A DNA stretch of 44,537 nucleotides, from positions 1-44,537 of the forward strand of contig NZ_AJLF01000004.1 of the NCBI RefSeq assembly GCF_000258515.1, read 5' to 3'. The stretch is from Thermococcus zilligii AN1. Lineage in GTDB: Archaea; Methanobacteriota_B; Thermococci; Thermococcales; Thermococcaceae. A program made the position numbers and the translations under genes. Positions 18,448-31,984 of this stretch are shown one piece after another (within the stretch, counting starts at the first letter, position 1; each line of letters begins with the position of its first letter). The notes under the pieces were generated by a model. That model did not search any database, had not been told where the DNA came from, and worked only from the letters and a program-made list of their open reading frames with translations.

Positions 18448-18609
18448 TGAAAACCCCTCCAGAAGTGATAATCAGGGCTAACCCAGAACAGGGGGCTTCA
18501 GGCCACGAAACGGGCAAAGTGAAGGATAAAACACTCCCCCCTCATGGGCATCGGGCCAGAGTTGGGGGTTTTATTTATAAGGTTTTTGGAATCTCTCAGG
18601 GGGATCACT

Positions 18610-19191
18610 GTGAGGATTGCCGTTGGCTCAACAAACCCCACCAAGGTTCTGGCCGTTAAAGAGGTCATGGAGATGATCTACGGGGATGTTGAAGTCTTTG
18701 GCGTTGAAGTCGACAGCGGAGTGCCAGACCAGCCCGTTGGAATGGAGGAGACCATCAGGGGGGCAATAAACCGCGCCAGGCAGGCCCTGGAAAAGGGGAA
18801 AGCGGACATAGGGGTTGGAATAGAAGCGGGCGTTTACCCGGCCCCAAACTCGCTCACGGGCTATTTCGACATCCAGTTCTGCGCTATCCTGGATAGGGAG
18901 GGGCAGATCACCATAGGGCACGGGCCGGGTTTTGAGTATCCGCCCTACGTGGTCGAGAGGATAAAAGAGGGAGTCGAGGCTGGAAAGGCCATGGACGAGC
19001 TCGTCGGGGAGAAGGGCTTAAAGAAGAAAACCGGCGCCATAGGGTACCTCACGCGCGGAATCCTCCCAAGAAAGGAGCTGAACAAGCTCGCCGTGCTCAT
19101 GGCCATGGTTCCACGCATGAACCCGGAACTCTTCGGTTTGAGAAATGTGCCCTCCCCGACCGCCCCCCGATCACCGCTCACGGGGGTGTGA
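18610..19191 (+). CDS. Inosine/xanthosine triphosphatase (YjjX family)
   Basis: 193-residue house-cleaning NTPase expected to hydrolyse ITP and XTP. The N-terminal [19 protein letters not shown] is the family signature, followed by [33 protein letters not shown] and [12 protein letters not shown] chose GTG 18610 because GGGG lies about seven bases before it and the product then starts at the conserved strand; an open extension of 22 codons has no support. A TATA-like TTATTTATAAGG is at about 18569-18580. The last 15-20 residues (after PELFG) are rich in Pro, Ser and Thr and longer than usual for the family. Confidence 0.88.
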
Positions 19192-19355
19192 GAAGGGAGG
19201 GCAGAGAAAATTATGTCCGGGGATTTTAAGCGTTTTCCCCTGCCCCCATTCTCGATGACCTGGGTGTGCTGTCCAGCCCTGGGTCAGCTAAACCTTGGCC
19301 CCTCTCCTCGGTACTTGTAGCGCTTCTCCTCTTTGAGAACCCCTCGGTCTGCCCT

Positions 19356-24675: not shown

Positions 24676-24812
24676 ATTCCCACCATCTTGTTGTTTGTTG
24701 TCCTGACCAGCGGCGACACCTATATATATTCCTAAGTTAAACGATGCAAAGAGCTCCGGGTTTGAGTTACGCAACGTACCTATTTAAACGTTGTTGATCA
24801 CAGGTGGTGATT

Positions 24813-26276
24813 ATGAGGATCCTGGTACTCGGCGGTGGTAGCATTGGCCGTCAGATAGCCGAGGCCCTCAAAGGGGAGTTTGATATAACGATAATAGAGA
24901 AGGACGAAATACGCGCCAAGTCCCTTTCTGAGGGGGGATTCAACGTTGTACAGGGCGACTTCTCGTACACGGCCACGCTCCTCAAAGCGGGCATTGAGAA
25001 AGCTGACGCCATTGTTATAACGACAAGAAACGTCGACACTGTTAAAAAAACGGCCTACATAATCAGGGGCAATAACCCAAATGTCCCAATAATAGCGCTT
25101 CTTCCGGATGATATGCCCAAAGAGACGCTGGAAAATGCAATCCGCGAGGAGTTCGAAAAGGAGGCCAGAATAGACTACGGCATTTACCCGCAGAAGGCAA
25201 TAATCGACGCGTTTTTGAGAACCCTGCTGGAACTCGGCGAAAAGAAAAACGCCACCCTTTTGTTCAGAAAACTTCAAGAGCTGAAAAAAAGCGGGGACTC
25301 TCTCCTGATAATAACCCACGACAACCCGGATCCAGACGCACTCTCGTCCGCGGTGGCCCTCTCCATGATCGCCCAGAACGCGGGATTGAAGACCACAATA
25401 GGCTACGGCGGGGAAATAACACACCACGAGAATCAGGCCTTTGTTAACCTCCTTGGGATCAATATAAGACGCCTTTCAAAGGGTTCCTACGAGCTCAGAA
25501 GACATCAATTTATAGCCATCGTCGATGCCCAGCCAAACGGAAACATAACAGTCCTCGACAAGGAGGATCTTGAGAGAGTAAAGGTGATAATAGACCACCA
25601 CCAGGTATTCCAGCACCTGTACGACTACCTGCCGGGTGATGTTTTCATCGACATAAGGCCGGAAGTTAAGTCGTCTGCGGCAATATTAACGGAGTACATG
25701 AAATCCCTGAACATAGTCCCGCCAGAGAACGTTGCGACTGCCCTTTTCTACGGGATATACATAGACACGAAGAAGTTCTCAAAGCTCAGCCATGTGGATC
25801 TCAAGGCCATCGAGTTTCTCGCGGGCAAAGTCAACTACGAGATTCTGGACAGAATCGAACGCCCGGATATTTCCCTTGAGACAGCGGAGATACTGGCCAG
25901 GGCAATACTGAACAGAAGAACATACAAGAACCTCCTCATTTCAAACGTTGGGTTCATAAACAACAGGGACGCCATAGCGGAATCAGCAGACTTCCTTTTG
26001 AGGCTCGAGGGGATAAGCACGGTTCTGGTATTCGGAATCGTCGACGATTCCATAGAGATATCCGCCAGAACCCGGGACGTAAGGGTGAACGTTGGGGCAG
26101 TTATGAAAGAGGCCTTCAGTGACATAGGGAGCGGGGGAGGACACCCGGCCATGGGGGGCGCAAGGATCCCCCTCGGGATTTTCAAGCTGGCCAAGGACAA
26201 AAACTCCCTCCTACGGCTCGTTGAGGAGGCAATAACGGAAAAGTTCCTCGAAGCCCTGGGAGTCAAAGAAAGCTGA
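24813..26276 (+). CDS. TrkA-N / DHH-DHHA1 phosphoesterase
   Basis: 487-residue protein with three domains. A Rossmann TrkA-N/RCK-like domain (about 1-130) has GGGSIGRQIAE, which suggests NAD(H) or nucleotide binding. A DHH phosphodiesterase domain (about 150-320) has the metal-ligand motifs THDNPDPDALSSA, VDAQ and the name-giving IDHHQ. The C-terminal DHHA1 domain has the substrate loop GSGGGHPAMGGA. DHH/DHHA1 enzymes hydrolyse cyclic dinucleotides, nanoRNA or pAp; which one cannot be told here. ATG 24813 follows GGTGGTGA, with TATA CTATTTAAACG at about 24779-24790. Its stop lies next to the 3' end of a convergent H/ACA RNA. Confidence 0.88.
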   Translation: MRILVLGGGSIGRQIAEALKGEFDITIIEKDEIRAKSLSEGGFNVVQGDFSYTATLLKAGIEKADAIVITTRNVDTVKKTAYIIRGNNPNVPIIALLPDDMPKETLENAIREEFEKEARIDYGIYPQKAIIDAFLRTLLELGEKKNATLLFRKLQELKKSGDSLLIITHDNPDPDALSSAVALSMIAQNAGLKTTIGYGGEITHHENQAFVNLLGINIRRLSKGSYELRRHQFIAIVDAQPNGNITVLDKEDLERVKVIIDHHQVFQHLYDYLPGDVFIDIRPEVKSSAAILTEYMKSLNIVPPENVATALFYGIYIDTKKFSKLSHVDLKAIEFLAGKVNYEILDRIERPDISLETAEILARAILNRRTYKNLLISNVGFINNRDAIAESADFLLRLEGISTVLVFGIVDDSIEISARTRDVRVNVGAVMKEAFSDIGSGGGHPAMGGARIPLGIFKLAKDKNSLLRLVEEAITEKFLEALGVKES

Positions 26277-26424
26277 TGTGGGCCCGAGCGATCCCCTGCC
26301 TTCACGGTAAGCTTTTCTACTTTCTCCGGCGGTCCGGAGCTCGGGCCCTGTGCGCCCGGCATCGTCACACCCGCTCATCGCCGGCACAAGCCTGCTCCCG
26401 GGCCCGGGCCACCGGGCGCGACCG
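26274..26424 (-). ncRNA. Two-hairpin H/ACA guide RNA
   Basis: No ORF, very GC-rich, with its own BRE/TATA upstream. Two hairpins of about 70 nt stand in tandem on the minus strand. Hairpin 1 (26352-26419) has a lower stem GCGCCCGG/CCGGGCGC closed immediately by ACA (26351-26349). Hairpin 2 (26280-26348) has a 10-bp lower stem GGGCCCGAGC/GCTCGGGCCC closed immediately by ACA (26279-26277). Each has an internal pocket and an upper part with GA-rich strands able to form a kink-turn (GCGATGAG in hairpin 1; GGAGAAAG opposite CGTGAAGG in hairpin 2), as needed for L7Ae. This is the architecture of archaeal guides that direct rRNA pseudouridylation with Cbf5, Nop10, Gar1 and L7Ae. The targets were not derived. 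The ends are approximate. Confidence 0.8.
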
Positions 26425-26443: not shown

Positions 26444-26460
26444 TGGTATTTAAGGCTTTC
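26444..26460 (-). promoter_or_regulatory. Promoter of the H/ACA RNA
   Basis: On the minus strand GAAAGC followed by CTTAAATA is a textbook archaeal BRE and TATA box (TATA core at 26447-26453). Standard spacing places transcription start near 26424, about five bases before the first hairpin stem. Its strand is opposite to both flanking protein genes, so it can only serve the RNA. Confidence 0.7.
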
Positions 26461-26504
26461 AGCCCCAATAACCCTCAGGAATATTCCCACGGTGGCTTCA
26501 TGCC

Positions 26505-26518: not shown

Positions 26519-26558
26519 CTGATGGACAGACCCGCTCATACCCATGGGGGTGACGCTC

Positions 26559-27776
26559 ATGGCCGAGAAGGTCAGGAACATAGTGGTTGAGGAGATGGTA
26601 AGGACCCCGGTTGAGATGCAGAAGGTGGAGCTCGTTGAGAGAAAGGGCATAGGCCATCCGGATAGCATTGCCGACGGCATAGCCGAGGCTGTCAGCAGGG
26701 CCCTCAGCAGGGAGTATATAAAGCGCTATGGTATAATCCTCCACCACAACACCGACCAGGTTGAGGTCGTTGGCGGAAGGGCCTACCCAAGGTTCGGCGG
26801 CGGTGAGGTCATAAAGCCGATATACATCCTCCTCTCCGGAAGGGCCGTGGAGATGGTTGACAGGGAGTTCTTCCCGGTTCATGAGGTGGCCATAAAGGCC
26901 GCCAAGGACTACCTCAGGAAAGCGGTCAGGCACCTCGACATTGAGCACCACGTCGTTATTGACTCGCGCATAGGCCAGGGAAGCGTTGACCTCGTCGGTG
27001 TGTTCAACAAGGCCAGGGAAAACCCGATTCCTTTGGCCAACGACACCTCCTTTGGAGTTGGCTACGCCCCGCTCAGCGAGACCGAGAAAATCGTCCTCGA
27101 GACTGAAAAGCTCCTCAACAGCGACGAGTTCAAGAAGAAGTGGCCGGCCGTTGGAGAGGACATCAAGGTCATGGGCCTCAGGAAGGGCGACGAGATAGAC
27201 CTGACCATAGCTGCGGCTATAGTGGACAGCGAAGTGGACAATCCAGATGACTACATGGCCGTTAAAGAGGCCATCGAAGAAGCGGCCAGGGAAGTTGTCG
27301 AGTCCCACACCCAGAGGCCGACCAAGATCTACGTCAACACAGCCGATGATCCGGAGAACGACATCTACTACATCACCGTCACGGGAACGAGCGCTGAAGC
27401 TGGAGACGACGGTTCCGTGGGAAGGGGCAACCGCGTCAATGGCTTAATCACCCCGAACAGGCACATGAGCATGGAGGCAGCCGCGGGCAAGAACCCCGTC
27501 AGCCACGTTGGAAAGATTTACAACCTCCTCTCAATGCTGATAGCCAACGACATAGCCGAGCAGGTCGAGGGGGTTGAGGAGGTCTACGTCAGGATCCTGA
27601 GCCAGATCGGCAAGCCTATCGATGAGCCCCTGGTTGCAAGCGTTCAGATAATACCGAAGAAGGGCTATTCGCTTGACGTCATCGAGAGGCCGGCCTACGA
27701 GATAGCCGATGCATGGCTGGCAGACATAAACAAGGTCCAGAAGATGATCCTGGAGGACAGGCTCAACGTCTTCTGA
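26559..27776 (+). CDS. S-adenosylmethionine synthetase, archaeal type
   Basis: 405-residue archaeal methionine adenosyltransferase making SAM from methionine and ATP. It belongs to the archaeal family, which is divergent from bacterial MetK. Signatures are [20 protein letters not shown] near residues 27-46, [50 protein letters not shown] and the basic [19 protein letters not shown] 26559 has GGGGGTGA about five bases upstream; an in-frame ATG five codons earlier lies before that ribosome binding site and is not used. The gene supplies the cofactor for the aminopropyltransferase, radical SAM enzymes and methyltransferases in this window. Confidence 0.96.
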
Positions 27777-27780
27777 GCCC

Positions 27781-30700
27781 TCAGCCTTTCTCTATTATCG
27801 CCATTATTTTTCTGTGGAGCTGTTTTATCATCTCCCTCCTGTCCTCCATGAGCACCACGTCGCTCGCCCCGATCACCTCAAGGTTGAAGGCGAAGGGGCT
27901 TGGGACGTTGTGCCTCTCGACGACAACCCTGATCCTCCCATTCCTAACCCAGCTCAGAAAGAGCCCGGCATTCTCCACGTCCATCTTGTCCTCCATTATC
28001 TCGCGGTAGACCTCCTTAAGCAGAGGAAAGTCCGGGTAGCGCTCCTTCAGAACTTTGAGAAGAGACACAGCCATTACCTGCTGTCTCCCCAGTCCTTTGC
28101 TCCTCCCCAAGTAGCGCCTGAGGATGAGCAGTCCGCGGTTGGCAACGTGTCTGAAGCGCCTCTTCAAAAGCTCGGTGTTTTCAAGGGCCCGCTCGAGAAC
28201 CCCGCGGAGGTCTTCAAGCTGGAAAAGCTCCCCTATCTCGACCTCCGAAAGCCTCGCCTCCTTTGGAACCCTCAGGAGGAAGCCGTTGTCGCTTATGGCT
28301 ATCCCAACGTTTGCCCCCTTCCGCCTGCTTATCGCGTAGGCGAAGGCCCTGCTCAGGGCGTCGTTGGCCTTTCTTCCAATGAGCGTGTGGAAAAAGTACT
28401 CGCAGGTGTTCTCCTTCTCCACCTCTTCAACAAGAACGGTTTCATCGTCGGGAACAACCGAGTACTTCGCCTGCTCGCGGAAGTAAGCGATGATAGCCCT
28501 CGCCGCTTTCTCGTCTATGCCATACTTTCTTGCCAGCCTCTTGACCGCGTCCTTTCTATTTATGAGGCCTTTAACTTCCCGCCTAAACCTCTGTATATCA
28601 AGGGCAAGGTCAAAGCTCAGAGGCAACATCTCGGAGAACCAGGCCGGAATTGTCGGCTTTGCCCCCTCTCTGGGAACCACGTATATCTTGTTGCCCCTGC
28701 TCCTGACGAACTCGTAGGTTCTCCCGGCTAAGACGAAGATATCACCCGGCATCAGCCTCTCGGCGAACTCCTCCTCGACCGTCCCAATCATTCTTTTGTC
28801 CATGGTGTAAACGCTGATTTTTGCCTCGTCGGGAATCGTTCCGGCGTTCATATAGTATATCGCCTTCGTCATCTTACCCCGTCTTCCAAACTTGCCATCT
28901 TCGAGCCAGATTTTGGCGTAGACCTTCCTGTCCTCCAAACCCGAGTATTCTCCAGCCAAATACCGGAGGACGCCCATGAAGTCCTCGAAGGGAAGGTCGT
29001 GGTAGGGGTAGGCCCTTCTGACAAGGCGGTAGGCCTCACCAACGTCCCACACCCTTTGGAGCGCCATCCCAACGATGTGCTGGGCCAGAACATCGAGGGG
29101 GTTCTTCGGTATCCTGACGCGGTCCAGGCGCCGGTTCCGGGCATTATGGGCCAGAACTGTCACCTCCACAAGGTCGTCGCGGTCGAGGGCGATTATAACC
29201 CCCTCGCTTACCTCGTGGAGCCTGTGGCCGGCCCTCCCGATGCGTTGCAGGGCCCTGTTGACGCTCTTCGGCGAGCCTATAAGGACGACGAGGTCAATAG
29301 TTCCAATGTCAATCCCCAGCTCCAGGCTTGTTGAGCTGTTTTTTGAGACGAAGCCGTTCACGACGTAGTTCCCTGTCTCAGAGTTTATTACCCCGTAGGC
29401 ATAACCAATGTAAGCGGGTTCAAGTGACGTTATTTTGTCAAAGAAGACATCCCCCTCGGCGAGGCTTTTCAGTTTTTGAATTTCACCCAGAACTTCACGT
29501 ATTCCCCTGTCCCTCGCCTCTTTTTCATAGACCTCCAGAAGCTTTAGGAGGTTCCCCCTGCTAATTTCACGTGCCCCGAGTTCGACTCTCACCGGGTTGT
29601 AGAGACTCATCTTCTGGAGGCGATAGGGGCTTATCCCGAGCTTTTCACGGATGTACCTCAAGCGCTTCCCAATCCCAGGAACCACGTCGAGGTTCGGGTA
29701 TCCCTCCGGGTAAAGTCTTTCCCGGTTGGAGAGGTCACTCCTCCAGGGCCATATCTTCTCGAAGAACCGCCTTAAATATTCCCCGCCGATGACGGCCACC
29801 GTATAAGCGGCGCCCTTCTCAGGTATCTCCCTGCCCCCAAAACGTTGAATCTCATCGTAACCTCCGGCTCTGATGGAAGATACCACCCCAAGCTGAAGGA
29901 GGACGTCTCTAATCCCCTCAGCAAACTCCCCCTTGAACGTCAAAAAGCCCGCTGAATAGACCCGTCCATCCTTAACCTCCAGATAGCCGTCTCCGTCGAA
30001 GTAGCCTGCCAGGAACTCCCTCCTGTGCTCTTCGGGAAGGACGTAAACTATCGAGGGAAAAACTCCCTTCCCGGACTTCCTCCCCTTGTTTCCCGTCAGG
30101 GCTTTGAAAATCCTCGTAAGCAGGGCGAAGGGAATTTCAAGCGCCCACGTGCTTTCGTTCTGTTTTCTTATAATCCCCTCGACGCCGAATTCTACTTTGC
30201 CCAGCTCCCGGTACTTTTCAAGCATTTCCCTATCGGTCGAGAACAGGGTCAGGGCCCCGCTTTTCCACGAGCCACAGGCCATCCAGAAGCCCAGCAGTCT
30301 GGCCAGTCCGGGAGTAAAGGTGGGAGGCAGGGTGTAGCCATCCTTGTCGGAGGTTATTCTGTCAACGTCTTCTCCCCTTATTTCAAGCCCCGCATCTCTG
30401 AGGAGGACTTTCAGCCTGCCCCATCTGAATGGGTAAACGCCGTTGAGTTGCTCGCTGAGGTAAGAGGCATCCCATCCCCTACGGCGCGCATAGGCACCAA
30501 CTGAACCGAATTTTGCCCGTATCGAAAGTTCAAGCTCCCCGAGGAAGCCCTTCTTGAGGTGAAGGTAAGCGGAGCCGGGAAGGACTTCAAAAATCGAAAC
30601 TTCCCTCTCCGGGCTCGGAAGTCTTCTGACGACCGCGACGTAGTCGCCTTCTCTAAGCTCTCCAGCCTCAACCCACTTGAGTTCCCCGTCCCTAACTGTG

Positions 30701-31938
30701 AGGAACCTGTGCTCCCCCGTCGCAACGATACCAAAGCCAAGCCTGGTCCTGATCCTGATGCCTTCACGGTTGTAGGGTATCCTGTGGGGCTCCCTGAACT
30801 TCACGAACCTTGCTCTGAAAGAATCCACTCCAGTGATCCTCGAAGAGCCCAAACCTTTAATCTCAACGGGGCCTTCCTCGGTCAGGATCTTCGAGTCCCC
30901 GGAGACACAGACGACGGCCTTAAGCTCCCCCCTCTTCAGCCTCTCCTCCACATCTAACCTGACCTCTCTGGAAAGGCTGGAGTGGTGGGTCTCTATAAGG
31001 CCCCCAAACTCGGGAAAACGCTTTTTTAGGTTAAACACGACCCTCTCGGCACCGCTTCTGGTATTGGTGAAGATGAGCGTCGTTCTGTGCCCCCTTATAA
31101 GCTCGGCCAGACGGTTGTAGAGGGCATCGCTAAGGACATTCGCCGGGGTGTATACCAGGTCTTCAACGACGCTTTCCACCTTTATCTCAGTCTCCTTTGC
31201 AAAGCTCACGTCAACTATAATGCCAGGCCGCGGCTTTCCCTCGTCGTCGAAGCCAAAGACGAACTTCGCTACCTCCTCAAGGGGGTGTATCGTCGCGCTC
31301 AGGCCTATCCTCACGAACTCCCTCCCGGCCATCTCCTGGAGCCTCTCCATCGTGAGGGCAAGGTGGGAACCGCGCTTGTTCTCAGCTAAGGCATGGACTT
31401 CGTCAACGATGACGTATTTCACCGTCTTAAGCCTCTCGCTGAATTTTGGGGCGTTTAAAGCTATCGCCAGGCTTTCGGGAGTTGTTATGAGTATGTGCGG
31501 CGGCTTTCTCACCATTTTGCTCTTTTCGTAGCTCGAGGTGTCGCTCGTTCTTATGGCGATACGGATTTCCGGTAAATCGTAGCCGAGCTCCTTCGCGACC
31601 TCCTTTATCTCCGCCAGGGGGCCCTCGAGGTTGCGCTTTATGTCGTTGTTGAGGGCCCTGAGCGGTGAGACGTAGAGGACGTAGATTTTATCCTCAAGCT
31701 TTCCCTCCTTTCCGAGCAGAATCAGCTCGTTTATAGCCGAGAGAAAAGCTGAGAGGGTCTTTCCGGAGCCGGTTGGGGAAGAAATCAGCACGTTTTCGCC
31801 TTTGTGTATCTCAACGACGGCGTAGCGCTGTGGGGGAGTAAAGCCCCCGAACTTCCGCTTAAACCACTCCCTGACAGGCTCGCTAAGGATGGAAAATATC
31901 TCCCCGTCGCTGTACTCCCTTTCAGCCCGGCGTATCAT
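27781..31938 (-). CDS. lhr: Lhr-type superfamily 2 helicase precursor containing an intein
   Basis: 1385-residue precursor; 861 residues after protein splicing. N-extein: Walker A SSPTGSGKT (about 53-61), DEVH box (about 179-182), motif III LSATI and motif IV TLIFTNTRSGAERV. C-extein: motif V STSLELGIDIG, motif VI QRIGRAGHR, then the winged-helix and Lhr-core domains. Lhr proteins are 3'-5' translocating helicases in DNA repair or replication restart. A 524-residue intein sits inside motif V, between Val343 and Ser868. ATG 31938 is chosen over a GTG three codons upstream; the ribosome binding site is weak (GTGAG). A metallophosphoesterase gene ends 38 bp upstream of Lhr's frame opening, a pairing also known in bacterial Lhr clusters. 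Confidence 0.93.
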   Translation of the reverse strand: MIRRAEREYSDGEIFSILSEPVREWFKRKFGGFTPPQRYAVVEIHKGENVLISSPTGSGKTLSAFLSAINELILLGKEGKLEDKIYVLYVSPLRALNNDIKRNLEGPLAEIKEVAKELGYDLPEIRIAIRTSDTSSYEKSKMVRKPPHILITTPESLAIALNAPKFSERLKTVKYVIVDEVHALAENKRGSHLALTMERLQEMAGREFVRIGLSATIHPLEEVAKFVFGFDDEGKPRPGIIVDVSFAKETEIKVESVVEDLVYTPANVLSDALYNRLAELIRGHRTTLIFTNTRSGAERVVFNLKKRFPEFGGLIETHHSSLSREVRLDVEERLKRGELKAVVCVSGDSKILTEEGPVEIKGLGSSRITGVDSFRARFVKFREPHRIPYNREGIRIRTRLGFGIVATGEHRFLTVRDGELKWVEAGELREGDYVAVVRRLPSPEREVSIFEVLPGSAYLHLKKGFLGELELSIRAKFGSVGAYARRRGWDASYLSEQLNGVYPFRWGRLKVLLRDAGLEIRGEDVDRITSDKDGYTLPPTFTPGLARLLGFWMACGSWKSGALTLFSTDREMLEKYRELGKVEFGVEGIIRKQNESTWALEIPFALLTRIFKALTGNKGRKSGKGVFPSIVYVLPEEHRREFLAGYFDGDGYLEVKDGRVYSAGFLTFKGEFAEGIRDVLLQLGVVSSIRAGGYDEIQRFGGREIPEKGAAYTVAVIGGEYLRRFFEKIWPWRSDLSNRERLYPEGYPNLDVVPGIGKRLRYIREKLGISPYRLQKMSLYNPVRVELGAREISRGNLLKLLEVYEKEARDRGIREVLGEIQKLKSLAEGDVFFDKITSLEPAYIGYAYGVINSETGNYVVNGFVSKNSSTSLELGIDIGTIDLVVLIGSPKSVNRALQRIGRAGHRLHEVSEGVIIALDRDDLVEVTVLAHNARNRRLDRVRIPKNPLDVLAQHIVGMALQRVWDVGEAYRLVRRAYPYHDLPFEDFMGVLRYLAGEYSGLEDRKVYAKIWLEDGKFGRRGKMTKAIYYMNAGTIPDEAKISVYTMDKRMIGTVEEEFAERLMPGDIFVLAGRTYEFVRSRGNKIYVVPREGAKPTIPAWFSEMLPLSFDLALDIQRFRREVKGLINRKDAVKRLARKYGIDEKAARAIIAYFREQAKYSVVPDDETVLVEEVEKENTCEYFFHTLIGRKANDALSRAFAYAISRRKGANVGIAISDNGFLLRVPKEARLSEVEIGELFQLEDLRGVLERALENTELLKRRFRHVANRGLLILRRYLGRSKGLGRQQVMAVSLLKVLKERYPDFPLLKEVYREIMEDKMDVENAGLFLSWVRNGRIRVVVERHNVPSPFAFNLEVIGASDVVLMEDRREMIKQLHRKIMAIIEKG
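29338..30909 (-). mobile_element. Intein in Lhr helicase motif V, with LAGLIDADG endonuclease
   Basis: The intein occupies precursor residues 344-867. Block A is CVSGDSKILTEEG with the nucleophile Cys1; block B is VATGEHRFL. The DOD/LAGLIDADG endonuclease lies between, with motifs LLGFWMACGSW (about intein residue 205) and EFLAGYFDGDGYLEV (about 298). Block F/G is AYGVINSETGN and YVVNGFVSKN ending in Asn, followed by Ser as the +1 extein residue. Splicing would restore LKAVV-SSTSLELGIDIG. Two oddities: the first endonuclease motif has Cys where the catalytic Asp is expected, and the residue before the terminal Asn is Lys instead of the usual His. The Lhr site is a known intein insertion point in Pyrococcus. 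Confidence 0.95.
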
Positions 31939-31984
31939 GGCTCTCACTTAGTAGGTTCGATTAAAAACTTTTTGGTATCCAAAA

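What the first reader, a model, noticed from the sequence alone, without database searches (positions are those of the whole stretch)
26274..26424. A two-hairpin H/ACA guide RNA gene hidden between a DHH phosphoesterase and SAM synthetase
Two perfect lower stems (8 and 10 bp), each closed at its 3' side by ACA, spaced as tandem units of about 70 nt, with kink-turn-like GA-rich strands and a dedicated BRE/TATA five bases before the first hairpin. It is not visible to ORF-based annotation. Its 3' end touches the DHH stop codon on the other strand.
Basis: partly seen in the sequence, partly recalled or inferred. Interest (0 to 1): 0.75.

Follow-up and report, generated by a model that had tools for sequence, protein, structure and literature searches.

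The report
Known archaeal pseudouridine-guide RNA (HgcE/Pab105)
The sequence is a real two-hairpin H/ACA guide RNA gene of a Thermococcus species, but it belongs to an RNA family (HgcE, also called Pab105) described years ago, so it is ordinary apart from some family-level detail.

Summary
Minus-strand 26421-26277 is the Thermococcus ortholog of HgcE/Pab105 (Rfam RF00060; 74.3 bits against a 50-bit cut-off). It has two abutting H/ACA units of 71 and 72 nt, each ending in ACA. Both carry GA/UGA kink-turn signatures and both have strongly covarying stems. Published work on Pyrococcus abyssi already splits Pab105 into motifs 105.1 and 105.2 and gives 23S L2554 as the target of motif 1 (PMC4652768). 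Here hairpin 1 points to the equivalent U (23S 2558 in this genome) and hairpin 2 to the 16S 5' end (GAUCC[U]G CCGGAG, about E. coli U20). Complementarity alone is not better than shuffled pockets; the target call rests on published work and on conservation. Corrections: the TATA-like box is about 31 nt before hairpin 1, not five, and Rfam models only one of the two hairpins. One small extra: in genus Thermococcus the upper stem of hairpin 2 is one layer shorter on both strands (7+7 nt) than in sister genera (8+8), contrary to the published 10-layer rule.

The parts
26349..26419 (-). H/ACA unit 1 (motif 105.1): 9-pair lower stem (8 WC + U-G), 10-layer upper stem with kink-turn, pocket GGCCC / GACGAU, ACA box at 26349-26351
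   Evidence: sequence and structure; covariation; R1 model hit 26277-26421
26277..26348 (-). H/ACA unit 2 (motif 105.2): 10-pair lower stem, 9-layer upper stem with kink-turn, pocket CUCCGG / GGAUCG, ACA box at 26277-26279
26260..26386 (-). Extent given by Rfam RF00060 (HgcE), 74.3 bits; it cuts hairpin 1 in the middle and runs past the ACA into the DHH gene
26448..26460 (-). Predicted BRE/TATA promoter (GAAAGCC + TTAAAT), conserved about 32-38 nt upstream of hairpin 1 in nearly all relatives; expected start near 26424
24804..26276 (+). Convergent DHH phosphoesterase gene whose stop codon TGA (26274-26276) abuts ACA box 2; this neighbour abuts the RNA in only about ten of the relatives
26544..27776 (+). 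Divergent S-adenosylmethionine synthetase gene (metK); neighbour of HgcE in Thermococcus and two further groups in the family, not in the Pyrococcus loci

Best explanation
The locus encodes the Thermococcus ortholog of HgcE/Pab105, a two-unit archaeal box H/ACA sRNA. It is transcribed leftwards from its own promoter. Each hairpin binds L7Ae at its kink-turn and Cbf5-Nop10-Gar1 at its lower stem, pocket and ACA, and presents an internal loop that base-pairs with rRNA around one unpaired U. Hairpin 1 guides pseudouridylation of 23S U2558 of this genome (P. abyssi 2554, about E. coli 2462). Hairpin 2 most likely guides 16S U15 counted from AUUCCGG (about E. coli U20). Shown here: family membership, the two-hairpin structure with covariation, conserved promoter and pockets, and presence of Cbf5, Nop10 and Gar1 genes. 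Inferred: transcription, RNP assembly and the modified positions in this organism.
For: RF00060 match above its gathering score. A two-hairpin model built from 34 loci hits 26277-26421 with 145 bits (this sequence is in the training set) and finds independent Pyrococcus and other family loci with 67-136 bits. Covariation: 13 pairs with two-sided changes in A1 and 23 in A2, with 0/500 shuffles reaching the score. ANA boxes, kink-turn UGA and pocket residues are invariant or nearly so. The upper-stem strand lengths of hairpin 2 change together (7+7 or 8+8). In the family search 72 of 94 genomes have a match over the cut-off. Pocket spacing of 15 nt to ACA fits the published rule; hairpin 1 best target is 23S 2558 = P. 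abyssi L2554, published for Pa105.1 (+4 offset). The same procedure ranks the published HgcF target first (2676 = L2672+4) and the HgcG target second (2020 = L2016+4). The 23S and 16S targets are identical in all genomes checked. Cbf5, Nop10, Gar1 found.
Against: No transcript or pseudouridine data for this organism. Pocket-rRNA complementarity is not better than shuffled pockets (hairpin 1: 126/300, hairpin 2: 27/300). In isolation hairpin 2 is predicted to prefer another local fold (UCCGG/CCGGA) over the kink-turn fold, and its upper stem has a C-A mismatch and 9 rather than 10 layers. The 16S target of motif 2 could not be checked against the primary paper (Muller 2008 not held).
Confidence: 0.96

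Rival explanations
1. Hairpin 1 is a working guide, but hairpin 2 has lost or changed its 16S guide function in Thermococcus and survives as a structural or protein-binding unit.
For: Thermococcus hairpin 2 has one upper-stem layer fewer than sister genera; the window adds a C-A mismatch; six species carry AGAU instead of GGAU in the 3' guide arm although their 16S target, where checked in four of them, is unchanged; G028 lacks CUCCGG.
Against: The left arm CUCCGG is invariant in every intact locus and GGAU in all but that clade, which is hard to explain without a conserved target; the window keeps 6+6 contiguous pairs to the 16S site.
Confidence: 0.15
2. The transcript mainly acts as an antisense or 3'-end regulator of the convergent DHH gene, or as a leader-linked regulator of metK.
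For: ACA box 2 abuts the DHH stop codon; metK is next to HgcE in all Thermococcus loci recovered.
Against: DHH abuts the RNA in only about ten relatives and neither gene was found beside HgcE in the nine Pyrococcus loci, while the RNA stays conserved. The gene is divergent from metK, so it is not its leader.
Confidence: 0.03
3. Chance inverted repeats in a GC-rich intergenic stretch.
For: Hairpin 1 alone folds only modestly better than shuffles (z -1.7).
Against: Rfam match, covariation and conservation across the family.
Confidence: 0.005

Closest known systems
HgcE / Pab105 H/ACA sRNA (Rfam RF00060), Pyrococcus abyssi
   Same: Homologous sequence above gathering score, two H/ACA motifs in tandem, conserved pocket core (GGCCC, GACG; CUCCGG, GGAU), same 23S target site, kink-turns, ANA boxes
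   Different: Hairpin 1 3' guide is GACGAU here against GACGUC in P. abyssi; hairpin 2 upper stem is one layer shorter (7+7 against 8+8); genomic neighbour is metK, not found beside the Pyrococcus copies
HgcF / Pab35 (RF00058) and HgcG / Pab40 (RF00064)
   Same: Same class of multi-hairpin Thermococcales H/ACA sRNA; both also present in this genome; weak cross-matches in both directions
   Different: Different pockets and targets; not orthologous
Eukaryotic hairpin-hinge-hairpin H/ACA snoRNA
   Same: Two hairpins, ACA box, internal-loop pocket
   Different: No H box hinge here (an ACA follows each hairpin) and archaeal kink-turns are present

Membership tests
HgcE / Pab105 (RF00060) | Covariance-model score above the curated gathering score | tested here: met
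   74.3 bits vs 50, model positions 1-130 of 130
HgcE / Pab105 (RF00060) | Orthology with P. abyssi Pab105 | tested here: met
   R1 two-hairpin model built from Thermococcus loci finds the Pyrococcus loci at full length with 67-82 bits; L047 comes from a 1,765,118-bp chromosome, recalled to be the size of P. abyssi GE5
Archaeal box H/ACA sRNA | Hairpin(s) each followed at once by an ANA box | tested here: met
   ACA at 26349-26351 and 26277-26279; A.A invariant in 34 relatives
Archaeal box H/ACA sRNA | Kink-turn or K-loop in the upper stem (tandem G-A pairs, 3-nt bulge) | tested here: met
   GA/UGA signatures in both hairpins, UGA invariant; three-dimensional fold not tested
Archaeal box H/ACA sRNA | 14-15 nt between pocket-closing pair and ACA | tested here: met
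   15 nt in both when the best targets are paired; rule from PMC4652768
Archaeal box H/ACA sRNA | Upper (GA) stem of 10 stacked layers (rule of PMC4652768) | tested here: inconclusive
   Hairpin 1: 10 layers. Hairpin 2: 9 layers in all but the divergent Thermococcus copies, 10 in sister genera
Archaeal box H/ACA sRNA | Compensatory base changes in the stems | tested here: met
Archaeal box H/ACA sRNA | Both pocket arms complementary to rRNA around an unpaired U-N | tested here: inconclusive
   Found (23S 2558: 6+4 pairs; 16S U15: 6+6) but not above shuffled pockets; hairpin 1 agrees with the published target
Archaeal box H/ACA sRNA | Cbf5, Nop10, Gar1, L7Ae encoded by the host | tested here: met
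   Cbf5, Nop10, Gar1 found; L7Ae not searched, assumed
Archaeal box H/ACA sRNA | Transcript and guided pseudouridylation | not testable with these tools
   No expression or modification data for this organism

The most novel reading that the evidence does not exclude
In genus Thermococcus the second unit of HgcE has moved to a 9-layer upper stem by a paired deletion on both strands while keeping its 16S guide arms, so the published rule that a productive guide needs exactly 10 layers is not general. In a six-species clade the guide arm itself has changed against an unchanged 16S, pointing to lost or retargeted modification.
Probability: 0.3. Interest if true: 0.3.

Novelty: already known. Interest (0 to 1): 0.15.

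Why it matters
It matters mainly as annotation: a stable RNA gene of about 145 nt that ORF callers miss, whose Rfam coordinates are wrong at both ends because the model covers only one of the two hairpins. The collection of orthologs also gives a natural test of the 10-layer geometry rule for archaeal H/ACA guides.

Tried and rejected
Scanned all pocket registers against 16S and 23S. 23S 2051 for hairpin 2 (8+4 pairs) scored well without the spacing rule but needs the upper stem opened to five layers, so it was dropped in favour of 16S U15 at the canonical 15-nt spacing. Significance of complementarity was tested and found weak. Guide-target co-change as proof was looked for and not found: the 23S target is identical in all 25 genomes, although Pyrococcus guides differ at the end of the arm. 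An exact-pattern hit in an Actinobacteria contig (L036) has no Rfam match and lies in unrelated sequence: chance. L030 was found to be HgcG, not HgcE, and excluded. The bacterial promoter/terminator scan was uninformative. The primary Pab105 paper (Muller 2008) is not held.

Full report
Observation. On the minus strand between the DHH phosphoesterase gene (24804-26276, +) and metK (26544-27776, +) lie two abutting hairpin units, 26419-26349 and 26348-26277, 71 and 72 nt long, each ending in ACA. The last ACA (26277-26279) abuts the DHH stop codon (26274-26276).

Identity. cmscan of the window against Rfam 15 gives RF00060 HgcE (Pab105) at 26386-26260, 74.3 bits against a gathering score of 50, E = 5e-14. 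Rfam's own structure covers only the second hairpin and leaves its first 38 positions unpaired, so its coordinates start inside hairpin 1 and run past the ACA. PMC4652768 states that Pab105 = HgcE = RF00060 and splits it into 105.1 and 105.2. It says that Thermococcus H/ACA genes, in particular those of T. kodakarensis, are orthologs of Pyrococcus genes.

Relatives and covariation. Within the family, 72 of 94 genomes have a match over the cut-off; none of 24 other genomes examined outside the family had one. An alignment of 34 distinct loci (A1) keeps the ANA boxes, the kink-turn UGA of both hairpins and most pocket residues. With the two-hairpin structure, 89.1% of cells pair, 13 pairs have two-sided changes and 0 of 500 shuffles reach the covariation score; sliding the partners by one column drops pairing to below 50%. 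A covariance model from A1 finds further family loci that were not in the alignment, including nine Pyrococcus ones, with 67-136 bits, and 23 pairs show two-sided changes in that second alignment. A2 is fitted to the structure and includes weak HgcF/HgcG cross-hits, so its counts lean towards the model.

Promoter. TTAAA preceded by a purine-rich BRE-like stretch lies 32-38 nt before hairpin 1 in nearly all Thermococcus loci (31 nt in the window, 26448-26453). The claim that the TATA itself is five bases away is wrong.

Neighbours. metK is adjacent in every Thermococcus locus recovered and in two other groups of the family, but was not found in the nine Pyrococcus loci. DHH abuts the RNA in only about ten loci. 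The RNA is therefore conserved independently of the DHH gene.

Targets. With the published 14-15 nt spacing rule, hairpin 1 (GGCCC / GACGAU) best matches 23S 2558 of this genome (AGUCGUC[U]C GGGC, 6+4 pairs). T. kodakarensis numbering is P. abyssi + 4 in this region, so this is P. abyssi L2554, the published target of Pa105.1. Hairpin 2 (CUCCGG / GGAUCG) best matches 16S U15 of the Rfam match (UUGAUCC[U]G CCGGAG, 6+6 pairs), about E. coli U20 (my alignment). It may be the P. abyssi site printed as S27 in PMC4652768, but this could not be verified. As controls, the same procedure on HgcF ranked the published target first (2676 = L2672+4) and on HgcG ranked it second (2020 = L2016+4). For Pab91 the published target L2685 was not among the top hits. 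Complementarity alone is not significant (126/300 and 27/300 shuffled pockets do as well), so the target assignments rest on publication and on pocket conservation. Both rRNA sites are identical in all genomes checked.

Small variant. In hairpin 2 the upper-stem strands between guide arms and kink-turn are 7+7 nt in nearly all Thermococcus copies and 8+8 nt in sister genera; the mixed 7+8 type appears only as an artefact of the clade with AGAU in place of GGAU. This gives 9 and 10 stacked layers, in conflict with the stated requirement for exactly 10. The window copy also has a C-A mismatch in this stem.

Machinery. Cbf5, Nop10 and Gar1 are encoded in the genome; L7Ae was not searched. T. kodakarensis dRNA-seq verified seven H/ACA RNAs (PMC4247193), but the entry for this locus could not be checked.

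Verdict. Real, correctly read by the first stage, already known as a family. Low interest.

Noticed in passing
window 19146-19202 (-): Second H/ACA sRNA gene in the same window: Pab91 (RF02795, 81.6 bits), overlapping the 3' end of the ORF 18544-19191 on the other strand.
   Followed up: partly
window 19146-19202 and L032 (23S, around position 2689): The published Pab91 target (P. abyssi L2685, here 2689) was not among the top hits: the 23S reads GACCG[U]C GCGAGA here while the guide arm keeps CUCAC, which by inspection leaves a mismatch at the second base of the 3' duplex.
   Followed up: partly
window 26478-26487: Palindrome GGAATATTCC between HgcE and metK; an AATATTCC...GTTAT block recurs at this place in most Thermococcus loci. 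Possible regulator site for metK or HgcE.
   Followed up: no
L018, L020-L022, L024, L025 (hairpin 2): Six-species Thermococcus clade with AGAU instead of GGAU in the 3' guide arm of hairpin 2 although the 16S site is unchanged in the four genomes checked; possible loss or retargeting of the 16S modification.
   Followed up: partly
L029 (G028): Divergent HgcE copy: hairpin 2 has lost CUCCGG; scores only 31 bits with RF00060 and 49.9 with the new model.
   Followed up: no
L027 and L028, hairpin 1: Two Thermococcus copies have a much shortened hairpin 1 upper part, apparently a K-loop or truncated form in place of the kink-turn stem.
   Followed up: no
window 27781-31947 (-): Large helicase-like ORF (1388 aa) that appears to carry an intein (an insert between VVCVSGDSKILTEEG... 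and ...NGFVSKNSSTSLELGID).
   Followed up: no
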